Positions 3,062 to 7,762 of a DNA stretch of 8,093 bases are shown in pieces. Below the pieces are notes generated by a model. That model was not told the DNA's origin and did no database searches. It saw nothing but the letters and a program-made list of their open reading frames with translations. The translations under genes and the position numbers were made by a program. This DNA comes from Pseudomonadota bacterium (GTDB lineage: Bacteria; Pseudomonadota; Alphaproteobacteria; Rhizobiales; Xanthobacteraceae). Position 1 is the stretch's first letter; every line of letters starts with the position of its first letter. The stretch lies in the NCBI GenBank assembly GCA_023405565.1, contig JAEXXW010000690.1, positions 1-8,093 on the forward strand, written 5' to 3'.

Positions 3062-4936
3062 TCAAGGCTTCGCGGTTGCCGGTTCTCCTCCAAGCGCACG
3101 CAGCGCGTTCATAATAACGGCAATGTCGATGGCCTCCTGCAAGACTGCGCCCTGCACCGGTGGCAAGTGACCGAATGCAGCGGCAATCATGGCCAGGCCC
3201 GAAAGTGCAAGCCCGGCAACCACGCTCTGCAACGCGATACGGCGTGAGCGTCGCGCAATCTGCATGGCCGGACCGATCCGGCCCAGTTCGTCAACAAGCA
3301 GAACGACATCGGCTGCCTGAGCCGAGGCGGCCGCCCCGCGCGCGCCCATCGCAACGCCGACATCGGCGGCGGCAAGCGCGGGGGCATCGTTCACGCCATC
3401 CCCGGCCATCATGACCGGACCATTCTTGCGCTCCGACAGAACGACCAGAACCTTCTGATCCGCAGACAATTCGGCCCGAACGGAATCGATATCCAGACCG
3501 GCCGTCACCGCTTTCGCCACGTCGACACGGTCGCCCGTCGCAAGCACGATGCGCGTCACGCCGATATCGCGCAGCGTCTTCAGGAGACGGCTCGTCCCAT
3601 CCCGCAGCCGGTCTGCCAGCACAATCTCCCCGGCATGCACGCCGTTGATCCCGACAGAGACCGTAATCGTGCCAGGCGCGACCTCCGGACGACGCGCAAT
3701 CGCACGTCCAATTCTGGAAGCGACATATTGCCGACCGCCCACGGCAATATTGCGCCCATCGACGATGCCCGTGACGCCCTCACCCGGCGTCTCGGCAACA
3801 TCCGACGGGATGCTCAATACGAGGCCCCGCTTGCGCGCATCTGCCACGATGGATTCCGCCACGACATGTTTCGAAGCCTGGTCGAGCGACGCGGCAAGGC
3901 GAAACAGCTCGTCTGCGGATGTACCGTCCACCGTCAGGATCGTCCTCACTTCGGGCTTGCCAACCGTCAGCGTGCCGGTCTTGTCGATCACGAGAGCCCG
4001 AATACGCCCCATGGTTTCGAGCGCCGCACCGCTCTTGATCAGGATACCGTTTCTGGCCGCGCGCGACATTCCCGAGACCCATGCGATCGGCACGGCGAGA
4101 ATAAGCGGGCACGGCGTCGCCACGACCAGCACCGCAACGGCACGGATCGGATCGTTGCTGAGGAAGCAGGCGCCGGCGGCAAATACGACTGTGACAGCCA
4201 GGAAAACGAGAGCAAACCGGTCCGTCAGCCGCGTCATTGGCGCGCGCGACTGCTGCGCCTGTTCCACGAGGCGCACGATCGCCGCATAAGTGCTCTCCAG
4301 CGCATGACGCGACGCGATGAGATCGAAGGATTCGCCGGCGTTGGTCGAACCACTCATGACCTCTTCGCTGGTGCGCAGGCGCACCGGAACGGCTTCTCCG
4401 GTCAATGCCGCCTGATCGAGGATCGCTGTGCCTGCCGCGACTGTGCCATCCACAGGCACGATGTCGCCGCGGCGGATCAGCAACCGGTCTCCTGGTTCGA
4501 TCGTGTCGATCGAAACCTCTTCCAGCTCGCCGTTGCGATGGCGCATGGCGAAACGTGGCACGCGGGCCAGCAACATCGACATGTCGCGACGCGCCCGTTG
4601 CTCGGCGAAGCGCTCGAGATATTGGCCGCCCGAATACATCAGCGCGACGATCGCAGCAGCGAGATATTCCCCAACGGCCAGCGCGGCACTCATCGACAGC
4701 ACGGCGACGATATCGAGACCAACCTTGCCGGCGCGCAGACTGCGCCAGATATCGAGGATCAGCGCGGCAAGAACCGGAACGACCGATACGGCCCAGATCG
4801 GACCGGACCATGCGTCGTATCCGCCGAGCCTGGCAACGAGTCCTGCGGCAAGGCCACTCAATGGAACGAGCACGAGCCCCGGAAAAGCCGGTGACGCTGC
4901 TTTGGTCGGCGACGTTGTCTTAAGGGACCGGCCCAT
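3062..4936 (-). CDS. P1B-type heavy-metal-transporting ATPase, TPCPL motif, no N-terminal metal-binding domain
   Basis: Membrane ATPase that moves transition-metal ions out of the cytoplasm, driven by ATP. The 624 residues contain the actuator motif LTGEAVPV (TGE at 179-181), the membrane metal-site motif ATPCPLILAVP (TPC at 274-276), the phosphorylated aspartate in DKTGTLT (Asp318), TGD (467-469) and the hinge GDGVNDAPA (512-520). The last helix carries LQEAIDIAVIMNALRAL. The N-terminus starts almost directly with membrane helices and has no CXXC or His-rich metal-binding domain. The usual His-Pro pair of the nucleotide domain is His-Val (357-358, in SKHVVAES). TPC is the signature used for the P1B-5 class, whose members have been linked to nickel and iron; CPC (Cu, Zn/Cd) and SPC (Co) are absent. 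The substrate is therefore not assignable with confidence. The gene starts 35 bases after the ilvH stop with no terminator visible, so co-transcription with ilvBH is likely. The ATG has only a weak AAGG upstream. Confidence 0.9.
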   Translation of the reverse strand: MGRSLKTTSPTKAASPAFPGLVLVPLSGLAAGLVARLGGYDAWSGPIWAVSVVPVLAALILDIWRSLRAGKVGLDIVAVLSMSAALAVGEYLAAAIVALMYSGGQYLERFAEQRARRDMSMLLARVPRFAMRHRNGELEEVSIDTIEPGDRLLIRRGDIVPVDGTVAAGTAILDQAALTGEAVPVRLRTSEEVMSGSTNAGESFDLIASRHALESTYAAIVRLVEQAQQSRAPMTRLTDRFALVFLAVTVVFAAGACFLSNDPIRAVAVLVVATPCPLILAVPIAWVSGMSRAARNGILIKSGAALETMGRIRALVIDKTGTLTVGKPEVRTILTVDGTSADELFRLAASLDQASKHVVAESIVADARKRGLVLSIPSDVAETPGEGVTGIVDGRNIAVGGRQYVASRIGRAIARRPEVAPGTITVSVGINGVHAGEIVLADRLRDGTSRLLKTLRDIGVTRIVLATGDRVDVAKAVTAGLDIDSVRAELSADQKVLVVLSERKNGPVMMAGDGVNDAPALAAADVGVAMGARGAAASAQAADVVLLVDELGRIGPAMQIARRSRRIALQSVVAGLALSGLAMIAAAFGHLPPVQGAVLQEAIDIAVIMNALRALGGEPATAKP

Positions 4937-4971: not shown

Positions 4972-5523
4972 CTACATCGCCTCTGGACCGCGACTGATGG
5001 CGACCACGCCGGTGCGCGACACTTCGACAAGGCCGAGCGGCAGCATCAATTCGACGAACTGGTCGATCTTGTCGCTCTTGCCGGTGATCTCGAACACGAA
5101 GCTTTCGGTCGTCGCATCGATCACGCGCGCCCGGAAAGCATCGGCAAGACGCAAAGCCTCGACGCGATGCTCACCCTTGCCGCGCACCTTCACCATCGCG
5201 AGTTCGCGTTCGAGCGACGGACCGGCCACGGTGAGATCGATGACGCGATGGATCGGCACGAGACGCTCGAGCTGATTCTTGATCTGCTCGATCACCATCG
5301 GCGTGCCGCTGGTAACGATGGTGATGCGCGAGATGTGCTTCTGATGTTCGGTCTCCGACACCGTCAGCGAATCGATATTGTAGCCGCGGCCGGAGAACAG
5401 CCCGATCACGCGGGCAAGAACGCCTGGTTCGTTGTCGACGAGCACGGACAAAGTGTGGCGCTCGATGCGCTGCTCGACGGGCGCTGCAGGATAATGGGAC
5501 GTGGTGGGAATGGTGGCGTTCAC
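4972..5523 (-). CDS. ilvH: Acetohydroxyacid synthase small (regulatory) subunit
   Basis: Regulatory partner of IlvB in the first common step of valine, leucine and isoleucine synthesis; it raises activity of the catalytic subunit and gives valine feedback inhibition. The start chosen is GTG at 5521-5523, preceded by AAGGA (5533-5537) nine bases away, giving 183 residues. The frame is open to a TTG at 5569-5571 (199 residues), but that codon has no visible ribosome binding site. The N-terminal ACT domain is clear (HTLSVLVDNEPGVLARVIGL, then FSGRGYNIDSLTVSE, from about residue 23), with the NEPG loop that binds valine in this family. The C-terminal domain includes LERELAMVKVRGKGEHRVEA and ends in VEVSRTGVVAISRG. 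An N-terminal tail of about 20 residues before the ACT domain is longer than in E. coli IlvH but common in alphaproteobacteria. It follows ilvB by 135 bases (5524-5658) holding an inverted repeat cluster. The symbol ilvN is equally used. Confidence 0.95.
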   Translation of the reverse strand: MNATIPTTSHYPAAPVEQRIERHTLSVLVDNEPGVLARVIGLFSGRGYNIDSLTVSETEHQKHISRITIVTSGTPMVIEQIKNQLERLVPIHRVIDLTVAGPSLERELAMVKVRGKGEHRVEALRLADAFRARVIDATTESFVFEITGKSDKIDQFVELMLPLGLVEVSRTGVVAISRGPEAM

Positions 5524-5658: not shown

Positions 5659-7419
5659 TTAAACCAGCATCTTGCCTTCTTCGGTGATCGCGTCCTCGAG
5701 GCTTTCCGCGGCATCGCCGAGGATCATCTCGTTGTGAGCGCGGCCGGACGGGATCATCGGGAAGCAGTTTTCCTTCTGATCGACGATGCAGTCGAAGATC
5801 ACCGGCTTGTCGATGGCGATCATTTCCTTGATCGCGTCATCGAGATCGGCCGGATTCTTGCAGCGGATGCCATGCGCATGCATCGCCTCTGCCAGCTTCA
5901 CGAAGTCGGGCAGCGCCTCCGAATAGCTTTCCGAATAGCGGTTGCCGTGCAGCAATTCCTGCCACTGGCGCACCATGCCCATATACTGGTTGTTCAGCAC
6001 GAACACCTTGATCGGCAGCCGGTACTGAACCGCGGTCGAGATTTCCTGCATCGTCATCTGCACCGAGGCCTCGCCGGCAATGTCGATGACCAGCGACTTC
6101 GGATGCGCCATCTGCACGCCGACGGCGGCGGGAAGACCGTAACCCATCGTGCCGAGGCCGCCCGATGTCATCCAGCGGTTCGGCTCCTGGAAGTGATAGA
6201 ACTGCGCCGCCCACATCTGATGCTGACCGACTTCGGTCGTGATGTAGGTGTCCCTGTCCTTGGTCAGTTCGAACAGGCGTTCGATCGCATATTGCGGCTT
6301 GATGATGTCCTTCGACGGCCGATAGCTGAGCGACTTGCGGGCACGCCACTTGTCGATCTGCTTCCACCACTCGGCCATCGCCTTCTTGTCCGCCTGCAGC
6401 GAGGAGGAGCGCCACAGCCGGATCATGTCTTCCAGCACATGCGCGCAATCGCCGATGATCGGAAGATCCACCTTCACCGTCTTGTTGATCGATGATGGAT
6501 CGATATCGATGTGGATCTTGCGCGAGTTCGGCGCGAATGCATCGAGCCGGCCGGTGATACGGTCATCGAAGCGCGCGCCGATCGCGATCATCACGTCGCA
6601 ATCATGCATCGCCCAGTTGGCTTCGTAGGTGCCGTGCATGCCGAGCATGCCAAGCCATTGCGGATCGGCCGCCGGAAAAGCGCCCAGCCCCATCAGCGTC
6701 GAGGTGATCGGGAAGCCGGTCAGCTTCACGAGTTCGCGCAGCAGATGGCTTGCTTCCTTGCCGGAATTGATGACGCCGCCGCCGGTATAGAACAGCGGCT
6801 TCTTCGCGCTCGCCATCAGCTCGACCGCCGCCTTGATCTTGTCGAGGTCGCCCTTGACCTTCGGCGTATATGTCTTGTGCTTGATATTCTGCGGGCCCGA
6901 ATAGGTGCCCTTGGCGAACTGAATGTCTTTCGGAATGTCGATCACGACAGGTCCCGGCCGGCCGCTGGCGGCGACATAGAACGCCTCATGCAGCACGCGC
7001 GGCAGATCCTCGATCCGCTTCACGAGATAATTGTGCTTGGTGCAGGGCCGCGTGATGCCGACCGTGTCGCATTCCTGGAACGCGTCGTTGCCGATCAGAT
7101 GCGTCGGCACCTGGCCGGTGATGCAGACGATCGGGATCGAATCCATCAGCGCATCGGCCAGACCGGTCACCGCATTGGTCGCACCGGGGCCGGACGTCAC
7201 CAGCACGCAACCGACCTTGCCGGTCGAGCGGGCATAGCCCTCCGCCATATGGACCGCGCCCTGTTCATGGCGCACGAGCACGTGCCTGACCCGCTCCTGC
7301 TGGAAGATCGCGTCATAGATCGGCAGCACCGCCCCGCCCGGATACCCGAAAATGTGGGTGACGCCCTGATCCGCGAGCGCCTCGATCACCATTTCGGCGC
7401 CGGTCATTTCCTTGCTCAT
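5659..7419 (-). CDS. ilvB: Acetohydroxyacid synthase large (catalytic) subunit
   Basis: Thiamine diphosphate enzyme that condenses two pyruvates to acetolactate, or pyruvate with 2-ketobutyrate to acetohydroxybutyrate, opening the branched-chain amino acid pathway in the cytoplasm. The 586 residues have the three expected domains. The N-terminal pyrimidine-binding domain has IFGYPGGAVLPIYD (23-36) and the catalytic Glu52 in RHEQGAVHMAEGYAR. The central domain has the cofactor-contact stretch GARFDDRITG (281-290). The C-terminal diphosphate-binding domain starts with GLGTMGYGLPAAVG and ends its motif at Asn-Asn (476-477). The usual Gly-Asp-Gly of that motif reads Gly-Glu-Ala (449-451). GGAG at 7427-7430, seven bases before the ATG, supports the start. 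The gene is first in its operon, is followed by ilvH, and is preceded by a leader-peptide attenuator. The symbol ilvI is used for the same protein in some relatives. Confidence 0.97.
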   Translation of the reverse strand: MSKEMTGAEMVIEALADQGVTHIFGYPGGAVLPIYDAIFQQERVRHVLVRHEQGAVHMAEGYARSTGKVGCVLVTSGPGATNAVTGLADALMDSIPIVCITGQVPTHLIGNDAFQECDTVGITRPCTKHNYLVKRIEDLPRVLHEAFYVAASGRPGPVVIDIPKDIQFAKGTYSGPQNIKHKTYTPKVKGDLDKIKAAVELMASAKKPLFYTGGGVINSGKEASHLLRELVKLTGFPITSTLMGLGAFPAADPQWLGMLGMHGTYEANWAMHDCDVMIAIGARFDDRITGRLDAFAPNSRKIHIDIDPSSINKTVKVDLPIIGDCAHVLEDMIRLWRSSSLQADKKAMAEWWKQIDKWRARKSLSYRPSKDIIKPQYAIERLFELTKDRDTYITTEVGQHQMWAAQFYHFQEPNRWMTSGGLGTMGYGLPAAVGVQMAHPKSLVIDIAGEASVQMTMQEISTAVQYRLPIKVFVLNNQYMGMVRQWQELLHGNRYSESYSEALPDFVKLAEAMHAHGIRCKNPADLDDAIKEMIAIDKPVIFDCIVDQKENCFPMIPSGRAHNEMILGDAAESLEDAITEEGKMLV

Positions 7420-7435
7420 GTCCTAACTCCACATA

Positions 7436-7483
7436 GATCACGACGACTTTGGATCGACGCGATCCAAAGTCGTAAACGTGATC
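7436..7483. repeat. Long near-perfect palindrome in the ilvB leader
   Basis: ACGACTTTGGATCG (7443-7456) and CGATCCAAAGTCGT (7460-7473) form a perfect 14-bp stem with a three-base loop. A further seven paired bases lie outside it (7436-7442 with 7477-7483), interrupted on one side only by three A. This gives 21 paired positions. It ends six bases before the GGAG of ilvB. In the mRNA it would be a very stable hairpin next to the ribosome binding site. It is probably a dispersed intergenic palindrome, although a role in ilvB translation is possible. Confidence 0.75.
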
Positions 7484-7497
7484 GTTCCCTCATTCAT

Positions 7498-7549
7498 CAG
7501 AGCATGATGTCGTCCGAAAACCGATTTGCGCTTTCGGCATCATGCTCTG
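7498..7549. repeat. Interrupted palindrome of a Rhizobiales intergenic repeat type
   Basis: CAGAGCATGATG (7498-7509) and CATCATGCTCTG (7538-7549) are perfect 12-bp arms. Inside them CCGAAA (7514-7519) pairs with TTTCGG (7532-7537), leaving a four-base bulge and a 12-base loop. The combination of AGCATGAT ends with an inner CCGAAAACCG stretch strongly resembles a palindromic repeat that recurs in many copies in Bradyrhizobium-like genomes; this is from memory, not a search. It lies between the ilvB attenuator terminator and ilvB and would be transcribed as a hairpin. Confidence 0.7.
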
Positions 7550-7585
7550 CTGTCGCGTCTTGTGGTCTCGTGCCGTTCCGGAACG

Positions 7586-7608
7586 AAAAAAGGGCCCGTA
7601 AGGCCCCC
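7586..7608 (-). terminator. Intrinsic terminator of the ilvB attenuator
   Basis: On the minus strand GGGCC (7602-7606), loop TTACG, and GGCCC (7592-7596) are followed at once by six T (7586-7591). Two further G (7607-7608) can wobble-pair with the first U residues. It stands about 30 bases after the leader peptide stop and 167 bases before ilvB, so it would end transcription before the structural genes unless prevented from forming. Confidence 0.85.
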
Positions 7609-7615
7609 GAAACAG

Positions 7616-7659
7616 CGCATCGCCCGGCATGGGTGGTTTCAATCACCCCCAGCGATGCG
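7616..7659 (-). promoter_or_regulatory. Leader hairpin (pause or anti-antiterminator stem) of the ilvB attenuator
   Basis: CGCATCGC (7652-7659) pairs perfectly with GCGATGCG (7616-7623), enclosing a second stem GGGTG (7644-7648) with CACCC (7631-7635). The 5' arm covers leader codons 16-18, so a ribosome stalled on the Leu-Val-Ile-Val codons just before it would melt the stem. A candidate antiterminator pairs CCC and CCG in 7625-7633 with CGGGGG at 7604-7609, taking the left arm of the terminator; this pairing is bulged and less certain. Confidence 0.6.
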
Positions 7660-7704
7660 TCTTCCTACGATTACGAGCGTCCACGAAATAAAATTGCGCG
7701 ACAT
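7639..7704 (-). CDS. Branched-chain amino acid leader peptide (attenuator)
   Basis: A 21-codon open frame (ATG at 7702-7704, TGA at 7639-7641) whose centre reads FISWTLVIVGRRI. Codons 10-13 are Leu-Val-Ile-Val, with further Ile codons at 6 and 17, so the peptide samples exactly the three end products of the pathway encoded downstream. Both valines use GTA, which appears uncommon in the neighbouring GC-rich genes, as is typical of control codons. A weak TGGA lies eight bases before the ATG. It sits about 23 bases after the predicted transcription start and is followed by a hairpin and an intrinsic terminator. By analogy with known ilv leaders, ribosome stalling under shortage of charged Leu, Val or Ile tRNA should allow read-through into ilvB. 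It is too short for normal gene calling. Function is inferred from position and codon content. Confidence 0.8.
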   Translation of the reverse strand: MSRNFISWTLVIVGRRIAGGD

Positions 7705-7733
7705 AGCCAAGTCCAGTACGAACGTTGCGCGGT

Positions 7734-7762
7734 TCTATAGGGTTTTATACCAGATCGGTCAA
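7734..7762 (-). promoter_or_regulatory. Sigma70-type promoter of the ilvB leader
   Basis: On the minus strand TTGACC (7757-7762) and TATAGA (7734-7739) are separated by exactly 17 bases, each five of six to the consensus boxes. Transcription would begin near 7727, about 23 bases before the leader peptide ATG and about 142 bases before the end of the terminator, as expected for an attenuated operon. Confidence 0.75.

What the first reader, a model, noticed from the sequence alone, without database searches (positions are those of the whole stretch)
7586..7762. Complete leader-peptide attenuator before ilvBH
The sequence shows a promoter with 17-base spacing, a 21-codon frame with a Leu-Val-Ile-Val run, a strong hairpin overlapping the end of that frame, and a GC stem with six T. 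The pathway downstream makes these same three amino acids. Attenuation of ilv operons by leader peptides is established in enterobacteria, and comparative work has proposed it for other proteobacteria. The short terminated RNA and peptide could also act in trans, as reported for the trp leader of Sinorhizobium; that part is speculation.
Basis: partly seen in the sequence, partly recalled or inferred. Interest (0 to 1): 0.75.

Follow-up and report, generated by a model that had tools for sequence, protein, structure and literature searches.

The report
Starvation switch, copied onto efflux pumps
The DNA just before a bacterium's leucine/isoleucine/valine genes holds a 21-codon mini-gene with a Leu-Val-Ile-Val run, a hairpin and a transcription stop signal, and is predicted to switch those genes on when these amino acids run short; this is a known kind of switch, but copies of it also sit before efflux-pump-type genes in some related bacteria, where they would likely do the same job for a pump.

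Summary
On the minus strand, window 7762-7586 holds a promoter-like pair, a 21-codon frame (MSRNFISWTLVIVGRRIAGGD), a hairpin around its stop codon and a terminator with six T, 166 nt before ilvI and ilvH. A leader frame of this kind precedes ilvB/ilvI in 60 of 76 evaluable related loci and in 40 of 40 genomes I sampled from RF02502 hits. Such attenuators of ilvIH in alphaproteobacteria are already in print: a new member of a known kind.

Added here: (1) Rfam's 'sRNA' Atu_C8 (RF02502) is this leader (18 of 18 loci tested; the window itself scores 37.4, below the cut-off of 50). (2) GTA is 62% of control Val codons against 1.4% in the same ilvB genes; 70% against 1.8% in a second sample. (3) Rhizobiaceae-type leaders look leaderless, the window's does not. 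(4) The E. coli pattern of antitermination was not seen. (5) In 14 genomes a second copy precedes a Bcr/CflA-type MFS gene, in one an ABC exporter-type gene. Regulation is inferred throughout; nothing was measured.

The parts
7757..7762 (-). -35 hexamer TTGACC of the predicted promoter
   Evidence: sequence; a TTGAC-type -35 was picked by script in most relatives; not called by the simple scan
7734..7739 (-). -10 hexamer TATAGA, 17-nt spacer; predicted transcription start near 7727
   Evidence: start site inferred, not mapped
7639..7704 (-). leader ORF, 21 codons MSRNFISWTLVIVGRRIAGGD plus TGA; predicted 5' UTR about 23 nt
   Evidence: similar leader frames in 60 of 76 evaluable ilvB loci
7666..7677 (-). 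control codons CTC GTA ATC GTA (Leu Val Ile Val)
   Evidence: the window's own ilvI has no GTA among 40 Val codons
7609..7665 (-). stem A: hairpin that starts right after the control codons, with the leader stop codon inside it
   Evidence: dG -28.1; stop codon inside in 60 of 60 leaders folded; pair changes in relatives
7590..7608 (-). terminator stem-loop GGGGGCCT TAC GGGCCCTT
7586..7591 (-). run of six T of the terminator
7576..7693 (-). match to Rfam RF02502 Atu_C8 (37.4 bits, E 7.8e-5, cut-off 50)
5659..7419 (-). ilvI (ilvB), acetolactate synthase large subunit, 586 aa
4972..5523 (-). ilvH, acetolactate synthase small subunit (start GTG at 5523 predicted)

Best explanation
Window 7762-7586 (minus strand) carries a 21-codon leader frame with a Leu-Val-Ile-Val run, a hairpin (stem A) around its stop codon and a terminator before ilvIH, and it likely works as a ribosome-mediated transcription attenuator that would let RNA polymerase read on into ilvIH when charged Val, Leu or Ile tRNA runs short. 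Shown: the parts, their order, their conservation, the codon bias. Inferred: with no ribosome, or after release at the stop codon, stem A folds and leaves the terminator's 5' arm free, so transcription stops. A ribosome held at the last control codon (Val in 56 of 60 leaders of the first sample, 29 of 40 of the second) would open the base of stem A, whose freed 3' strand would compete for the terminator's 5' arm and allow read-through. GTA for Val and CTT/CTC for Leu would make the stall depend on particular tRNA isoacceptors. The terminated RNA of about 140 nt would be what Rfam lists as the sRNA Atu_C8.
For: Leader frame in 60 of 76 evaluable ilvB loci, and ilvB directly after 40 of 40 RF02502 hits that I picked from the listed single-hit rows. 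RF02502 at E <= 0.001 in 161 of 297 genomes of the order and 381 of 394 of the family Rhizobiaceae, 0 of 14 control genomes. Stop codon inside stem A in 60 of 60. Pair changes: 27 cells changed on both sides, shuffled mean 10.1, 0 of 500 as high, 0 to 4 when the partner is slid; 6 of 13 pairs in the 17-row alignment that includes the window. Control codons: GTA 68 of 110 Val against 37 of 2695 in the ilvB genes, CTG 1 of 75 Leu against 1575 of 2717 (61 leaders); second sample GTA 51 of 73 against 33 of 1827, CTG 2 of 57 against 994 of 1785 (40 leaders). Terminator 5' arm sequestered 0.06 with stem A intact against 0.61 for shuffled upstream RNA, and 0.47 with the ribosome at the last control codon; in the window 0.01 at Leu, 0.49 at the last Val. 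Literature passages: PMC1273637, PMC4117421, PMC2573895.
Against: No specific antiterminator is seen: with stem A opened, pairing of the terminator arm is at or below the shuffled level (0.47 against 0.60 at the last control codon; 0.50 against 0.51 at stop). In 6 of 7 E. coli attenuators the test gives high values at the first control codon and 0 to 0.15 at stop (hisL 0.56 at both); here it is 0.17 and 0.50, so the model needs fast ribosome release at the stop codon. The value at the last control codon depends on the assumed footprint (0.17, 0.47, 0.56 for edges 9, 12, 15). In the full-length RNA the terminator stays the main fold in all states (means 0.88 to 0.95). Two of five covariation measures do not exceed shuffles clearly (pairs with a change on both sides 39 of 500 as high, further pair types 471 of 500). 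L007, L009 and L013 lack a proper T run. 16 of 76 related loci lack the unit. At the looser E <= 1, RF02502 also rings in 8 of 14 control genomes, none over the cut-off. Codon counts come from related sequences and are not independent. No expression data.
Confidence: 0.82

Rival explanations
1. A textbook E. coli-type attenuator with a specific, mutually exclusive antiterminator (region 2 pairing with region 3) that equilibrium folding misses.
For: The outward parts match. A G-U wobble is kept in the terminator of 43 of 60 leaders and at one pair in 22 of 24, as if the 5' arm had a second partner. The shuffle test has little power: at the first control codon only ilvL and thrL of 7 E. coli leaders exceed all but 5% of their shuffles. 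For this last reason I raised this rival from 0.30 to 0.35 on rechecking.
Against: The contrast between control codons and stop that 6 of 7 E. coli leaders show is absent or reversed here; no upstream partner is better than shuffled sequence.
Confidence: 0.35
2. A stand-alone small RNA (Rfam's label for Atu_C8) whose main work is in trans on other mRNAs, by the RNA or by the peptide.
For: Rfam types RF02502 as 'Gene; sRNA'; the trp leader of Sinorhizobium yields a leaderless sRNA and a peptide that act in trans (passages of PMC7298713 and PMC10117765).
Against: 40 of 40 sampled hits lie directly before ilvB; the frame codes for Leu/Val/Ile with biased codons, which a pure sRNA would not need; the peptide's N-terminus varies.
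Confidence: 0.1
3. A plain partial terminator; ilvIH is controlled elsewhere (for example by a protein regulator), and the leader frame is idle.
For: The terminator is the main fold in every simulated state; 16 of 76 loci do without the unit.
Against: Leu/Val/Ile run with strong codon bias in two samples; pair changes in stem A.
Confidence: 0.08

Closest known systems
ilvIH/ilvB leader-peptide attenuators of alphaproteobacteria (Vitreschak et al. 2004, cited in PMC1273637; Caulobacter ilv leader, PMC4117421; 'ilvIH cis regulatory' element of S. meliloti, PMC2573895)
   Same: Position before acetolactate synthase genes; a leader peptide (PMC1273637), tandem Ile and Val codons and a terminator (PMC4117421). 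Seen in passages only; the 2004 paper and Tarleton et al. 1994 are not held, and what I know of them beyond the citing passages is recalled.
   Different: New genome. The codon bias against the ilvB gene, the missing antiterminator pattern, the led/leaderless split and the pump copies were not in the passages read.
Rfam RF02502 Atu_C8
   Same: Covers the same RNA: 18 of 18 loci that I picked from the 60 match at or above the cut-off, at the leader; its consensus can be read as MIILVVGPRMGRAV (alignment, by eye).
   Different: Rfam types it as an sRNA gene, not as a cis-regulator; the window scores 37.4, under the cut-off of 50, as do four other leaders outside the Rhizobiaceae type (32.5 to 41.3).
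E. coli leuL, trpL, ilvL, thrL, pheL, ivbL and hisL attenuators
   Same: Leader codons for the end product, a hairpin over the leader frame, a terminator.
   Different: In 6 of 7, sequestering of the terminator arm is high at the first control codon and low at stop; here the reverse.
Sinorhizobium meliloti trpL / rnTrpL / peTrpL
   Same: Attenuator with a terminated short RNA; leaderless start, as predicted here for Rhizobiaceae-type ilv leaders (passages).
   Different: Trp, not Leu/Val/Ile; trans functions were shown there and not here; the window's leader has a predicted 5' UTR of about 23 nt.

Membership tests
Ribosome-mediated amino acid attenuator | short frame before the operon, rich in codons for its end products | tested here: met
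   CTC GTA ATC GTA at 7677-7666; leader frame in 60 of 76 evaluable loci
Ribosome-mediated amino acid attenuator | intrinsic terminator between leader and first gene | tested here: met
   7608-7586
Ribosome-mediated amino acid attenuator | downstream genes make those amino acids | tested here: met
   ilvI and ilvH by NCBIfam and Pfam
Ribosome-mediated amino acid attenuator | hairpin overlapping the leader frame that affects access to the terminator | tested here: met
   stem A, stop codon inside in 60 of 60; terminator arm 0.06 sequestered with it against 0.61 for shuffled upstream RNA; by computation only
Ribosome-mediated amino acid attenuator | specific antiterminator formed only when the ribosome stalls at control codons | tested here: inconclusive
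   not above shuffled sequence and no drop at stop; E. coli leaders show the drop in 6 of 7, but only 2 of 7 clearly beat their own shuffles; equilibrium folding only
Ribosome-mediated amino acid attenuator | expression rises on starvation for the amino acid, dependent on leader translation | not testable with these tools
   needs reporter fusions
Rfam RF02502 Atu_C8 | score at or above the curated cut-off of 50 bits | tested here: not met
   window 37.4 bits, E 7.8e-5; 57.2 to 124 bits in 18 Rhizobiaceae-like and related loci. So the window corresponds by position and parts, but is not a called member
Independent trans-acting sRNA / peptide | regulates RNAs elsewhere in the genome | not testable with these tools
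   no target data

The most novel reading that the evidence does not exclude
This BCAA-tRNA-sensing attenuator has been copied as a ready-made module onto export genes: full leaders (codon run, stem A, terminator) sit before one clade of Bcr/CflA-type MFS efflux genes in 14 genomes and before an ABC exporter-type gene in one, so that the pumps would be induced whenever charging of Val/Leu tRNA fails, for instance by natural inhibitors of acetolactate synthase or of the branched-chain tRNA synthetases. The cell would thus read a poison by its effect on translation and not by binding it.
Probability: 0.45. Interest if true: 0.78.

Novelty: new member of a known kind. Interest (0 to 1): 0.5.

Why it matters
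The window's own element is an expected one, and its confirmation mainly corrects a label: an RNA family catalogued as an sRNA is the leader of ilvIH. What reaches further is that the family offers a natural test of two open points. The codon bias (GTA; CTT/CTC in place of CTG) could be held against the theory that attenuators use codons whose tRNA isoacceptors lose charge first (PMC1183508, passages), in GC-rich alphaproteobacteria. And the copies before efflux-type genes suggest that tRNA-charge sensing has been reused for pump control; if so, the inducing starvation points to the substrate of the pump.

Tried and rejected
Leader as a whole against shuffles: not more stable (z -0.88). The MAFFT alignment of 59 leaders gave no consensus base pair (A1, model R1), probably because the apical part of stem A varies in length; the structural claims rest on the 24-row alignment A2, on A3 (17 rows) and on single folds. 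Model R2 was built and not used. A stall-dependent antiterminator was sought by masking the ribosome footprint, with seven E. coli leaders as controls and shuffled upstream RNA as null; not seen, with the limit that only ilvL and thrL of the seven E. coli leaders clearly beat their own shuffles at the first control codon, and that leuL and ilvL are near zero at their last control codon. Pairing of the conserved TTGCC after the T run with stem A was looked at by eye and dropped. A relation to Rfam ilvB-OMG was rejected: its only weak hit lies at 3216-3281, inside another gene. L137 counts as a leader by regular expression only (no RF02502 hit at E 0.01); L097 was missed by that expression and counts by RF02502; a match of the expression in L143 was judged spurious and counted as no leader; L142 is a variant leader outside the clade; G578's leader scores 30.5 bits, under the cut-off. 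In the first MFS tree L138 had dropped out through a script fault; the tree was rebuilt with it.

Rows dropped before counts: 4 of 80 loci (L005, L034, L046, L079) have no usable upstream stretch. Presence or absence was judged from the scan (900 nt, Leu/Ile/Val-rich frame and a T run) and then by eye on 420 nt for those it left. L041 has a leader frame but no 3' half of the hairpin, so structure counts use 60 sequences (59 loci and the window); L064 was left out of A1. The 18 loci were picked by me from the 60, and the 40 genomes from the listed single-hit rows, whose list is cut off.

Full report
WHAT IS THERE. The window's minus strand reads, from 7762 down: TTGACC, 17 nt, TATAGA (7739-7734), a predicted start near 7727, ATG at 7704, 21 codons MSRNFISWTLVIVGRRIAGGD, TGA; a hairpin at 7665-7609; a terminator stem at 7608-7590 and six T at 7591-7586; then 166 nt to the ATG of ilvI at 7419, with ilvH behind it. 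The two genes are called by NCBIfam as acetolactate synthase 3 large subunit (1154.9 bits, cut-off 974) and small subunit (233.9, cut-off 119). The promoter is plausible but not called by the simple scan, and the leader as a whole folds no better than shuffles.

IT IS CONSERVED. One scan with the ilvI protein gave 80 loci with record titles. Upstream stretches could be judged in 76. In 60 there is a short Leu/Ile/Val-rich frame before ilvB, in 59 of these followed by a hairpin and a terminator-like stem (three, L007, L009 and L013, without a proper T run); 16 have no such frame. The titles of the 16 include Hyphomicrobium, Parvibaculum, Methyloligella, Rhodobiaceae and Rhodospirillales, and some broader names; many have a miaA-like frame ahead of ilvB, by eye. 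In 60 of 60 folded leaders (window included) the widest hairpin between control run and terminator, stem A, starts 0 to 8 nt after the run, encloses the stop codon, and ends at most 7 nt before the terminator. In 24 Rhizobiaceae/Phyllobacteriaceae-type leaders the helices have 98.8% standard pairs and 27 cells changed on both sides (shuffled mean 10.1, 0 of 500 as high; 0 to 4 when the partner is slid); the number of pairs with such a change (4, shuffled 2.6) and of pair types (14, shuffled 14.3) do not stand out. In a 17-row alignment with the window, 6 of 13 predicted pairs have a change on both sides.

RFAM'S sRNA Atu_C8 IS THIS LEADER. The window matches RF02502 with 37.4 bits. All 18 loci that I picked for a second search match it at or above the cut-off, at the leader. 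In seven whole genomes the best hit is the ilvB leader, over the cut-off in three. At E <= 0.001 it rings in 161 of 297 genomes of the order (48 over the cut-off) and 381 of 394 of the family Rhizobiaceae (374 over), in 0 of 14 control genomes; at the looser E <= 1 it rings in 8 of the 14, never over the cut-off. Of 40 single-hit genomes that I picked, 40 have ilvB directly downstream and a leader frame. The family consensus itself can be read as a leader with Ile-Ile-Leu-Val-Val (by eye).

CONTROL CODONS. In 61 leaders the longest Leu/Ile/Val run uses GTA for 68 of 110 Val codons, against 37 of 2695 in the same organisms' ilvB genes; CTG for 1 of 75 Leu against 1575 of 2717; CTT for 38 of 75 against 145 of 2717; ATT for 45 of 79 Ile against 308 of 2405. 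The second sample repeats it: GTA 51 of 73 against 33 of 1827, CTG 2 of 57 against 994 of 1785. The window uses GTA for both control Val codons and not once among 40 Val codons of its ilvI. A need for A/T at the third base alone would not favour GTA over GTT (68 to 5) or CTT over CTA (38 to 1). The last control codon is Val in 56 of 60 leaders of the first sample and 29 of 40 of the second. The leaders are related, so the counts are not independent. The bias recalls selective charging of isoacceptors (PMC1183508, passages); which tRNAs read these codons here is recalled, not tested.

LED AND LEADERLESS. The distance from the best -10 to the leader start falls into two sets: 7 to 8 nt in 24 leaders of the Rhizobiaceae/Phyllobacteriaceae type; 11, 12 and 17 nt in L053, L063 and L064; and 24 to 46 nt in the other 34, 29 in the window (some promoters, such as those of L036, L039, L047 and L052, score poorly). 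The first set would start transcription at or next to the ATG, as known for S. meliloti trpL (passages of PMC10117765 and PMC7298713). In L060 and L076 the RF02502 match begins at the G of the ATG, which agrees but may be only the model's edge.

HOW IT WORKS. For each leader the upstream RNA was masked to the front edge of a ribosome, the transcript cut before the terminator's 3' arm, and the chance computed that the terminator's 5' arm is paired upstream. In E. coli leuL, trpL, ilvL, thrL, pheL and ivbL it is 0.46 to 0.84 at the first control codon and 0 to 0.15 at stop; hisL has 0.56 at both. In this family it is 0.17 at the first control codon, 0.47 at the last and 0.50 at stop; with stem A intact 0.06, where shuffled upstream RNA gives 0.61. 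So stem A keeps the terminator arm free, and once its base is opened by 4 to 6 nt the arm is sequestered about as often as by shuffled RNA. The shuffle test alone is weak: of the E. coli leaders only ilvL and thrL beat 95% of their shuffles at the first control codon; the contrast between control codons and stop is the better yardstick. The best reading is that stem A is a protector hairpin: the default is termination, a ribosome held at the last control codon opens the base of stem A and favours read-through, and a ribosome that finishes releases quickly and lets stem A close again. This last step is needed because a ribosome resting at the stop codon looks like a stalled one in this test. 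The estimate depends on the footprint chosen and on equilibrium folding; in full-length RNA the terminator prevails (means 0.88 to 0.95).

COPIES ON OTHER GENES. Of the 394 Rhizobiaceae genomes, 19 have two copies. The second copy lies before a Bcr/CflA-type MFS gene in 12, before a second ilvI in 5, before an ABC exporter-type gene in 1 (L125) and at a contig end in 1. The order sample has 7 two-copy genomes, of which three are also in the family sample; the other four add two MFS cases (G134, G266) and two genomes with tandem ilvB copies (G230, G267). All 14 MFS genomes also keep a leader before ilvB. The two MFS proteins scanned score 175.1 and 163.4 bits against TIGR00710 (cut-off 200.9), their best NCBIfam match, so the family name is a near-member label. 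Their leaders keep codon run, stem A and terminator, for example MNTALVLVVVGRRMGRMV. MFS relatives at E <= 1e-60 are in 129 of 297 Rhizobiaceae genomes; of the 30 nearest, 9 have the leader, one a variant (L142), 20 none. In a tree of 36 MFS proteins the 15 with a leader (L137 by regular expression only) fall with L138 in one well-supported group (100/97), apart from the 20 others; the root is drawn at the midpoint, and L127 and L124 have long branches. L138 carries a TPP riboswitch upstream instead (74.4 bits, cut-off 54.3). What the pump carries is unknown. Two searches for such an attenuator in print listed nothing of the kind, in an open-access library only.

KNOWN OR NEW. An ilvB leader peptide of alphaproteobacteria was already described (PMC1273637, passage, citing Vitreschak et al. 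2004), an 'ilvIH cis regulatory' element is listed for S. meliloti (PMC2573895, passage), and attenuation through a leader frame is drawn for Caulobacter ilvIH (PMC4117421, passages). The window is therefore a new member of a known kind. None has been tested at the bench.

Noticed in passing
L088, L092, L094, L095, L097, L116, L117, L118, L123, L124, L126, L127, L128, L130: A second ilv-type leader lies before a Bcr/CflA-type MFS efflux gene in 14 genomes.
   Followed up: yes
L125 1136-1260, gene from about 1309: An ilv-type leader before an ABC exporter-type gene (G564), a single case.
   Followed up: partly
L138 1244-1359: A TPP riboswitch stands before the MFS relative of G437, where its relatives have the ilv-type leader.
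   Followed up: partly
L099 and L100: Two ilvB copies in tandem, 2.7 kb apart, each with its own leader; one leader of each pair has a shorter control run (MPSFFVVLDW and MPSFCVVLDW, read by eye).
   Followed up: no
window 7443-7473 and 7495-7552: Two palindromes between the terminator and ilvI: 14-nt arms fully complementary, and 18-nt arms 89% complementary. The second one's core was found in 1 of 200 fetched loci (L041).
   Followed up: partly
terminators of the family, pair 85-96: A U-G wobble inside the terminator stem is kept in 22 of 24 Rhizobiaceae/Phyllobacteriaceae-type leaders, and some G-U wobble in 43 of 60 leaders.
   Followed up: partly
just after the T run in many leaders, e.g. 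L032, L004, L014: A recurring TTGCC or ATGCC follows the T run, beyond the end of the terminated RNA (by eye).
   Followed up: no
L034, L064: Records titled Rhodanobacteraceae and Mucilaginibacter hold alphaproteobacterial-type ilvB stretches, perhaps misbinned contigs.
   Followed up: no
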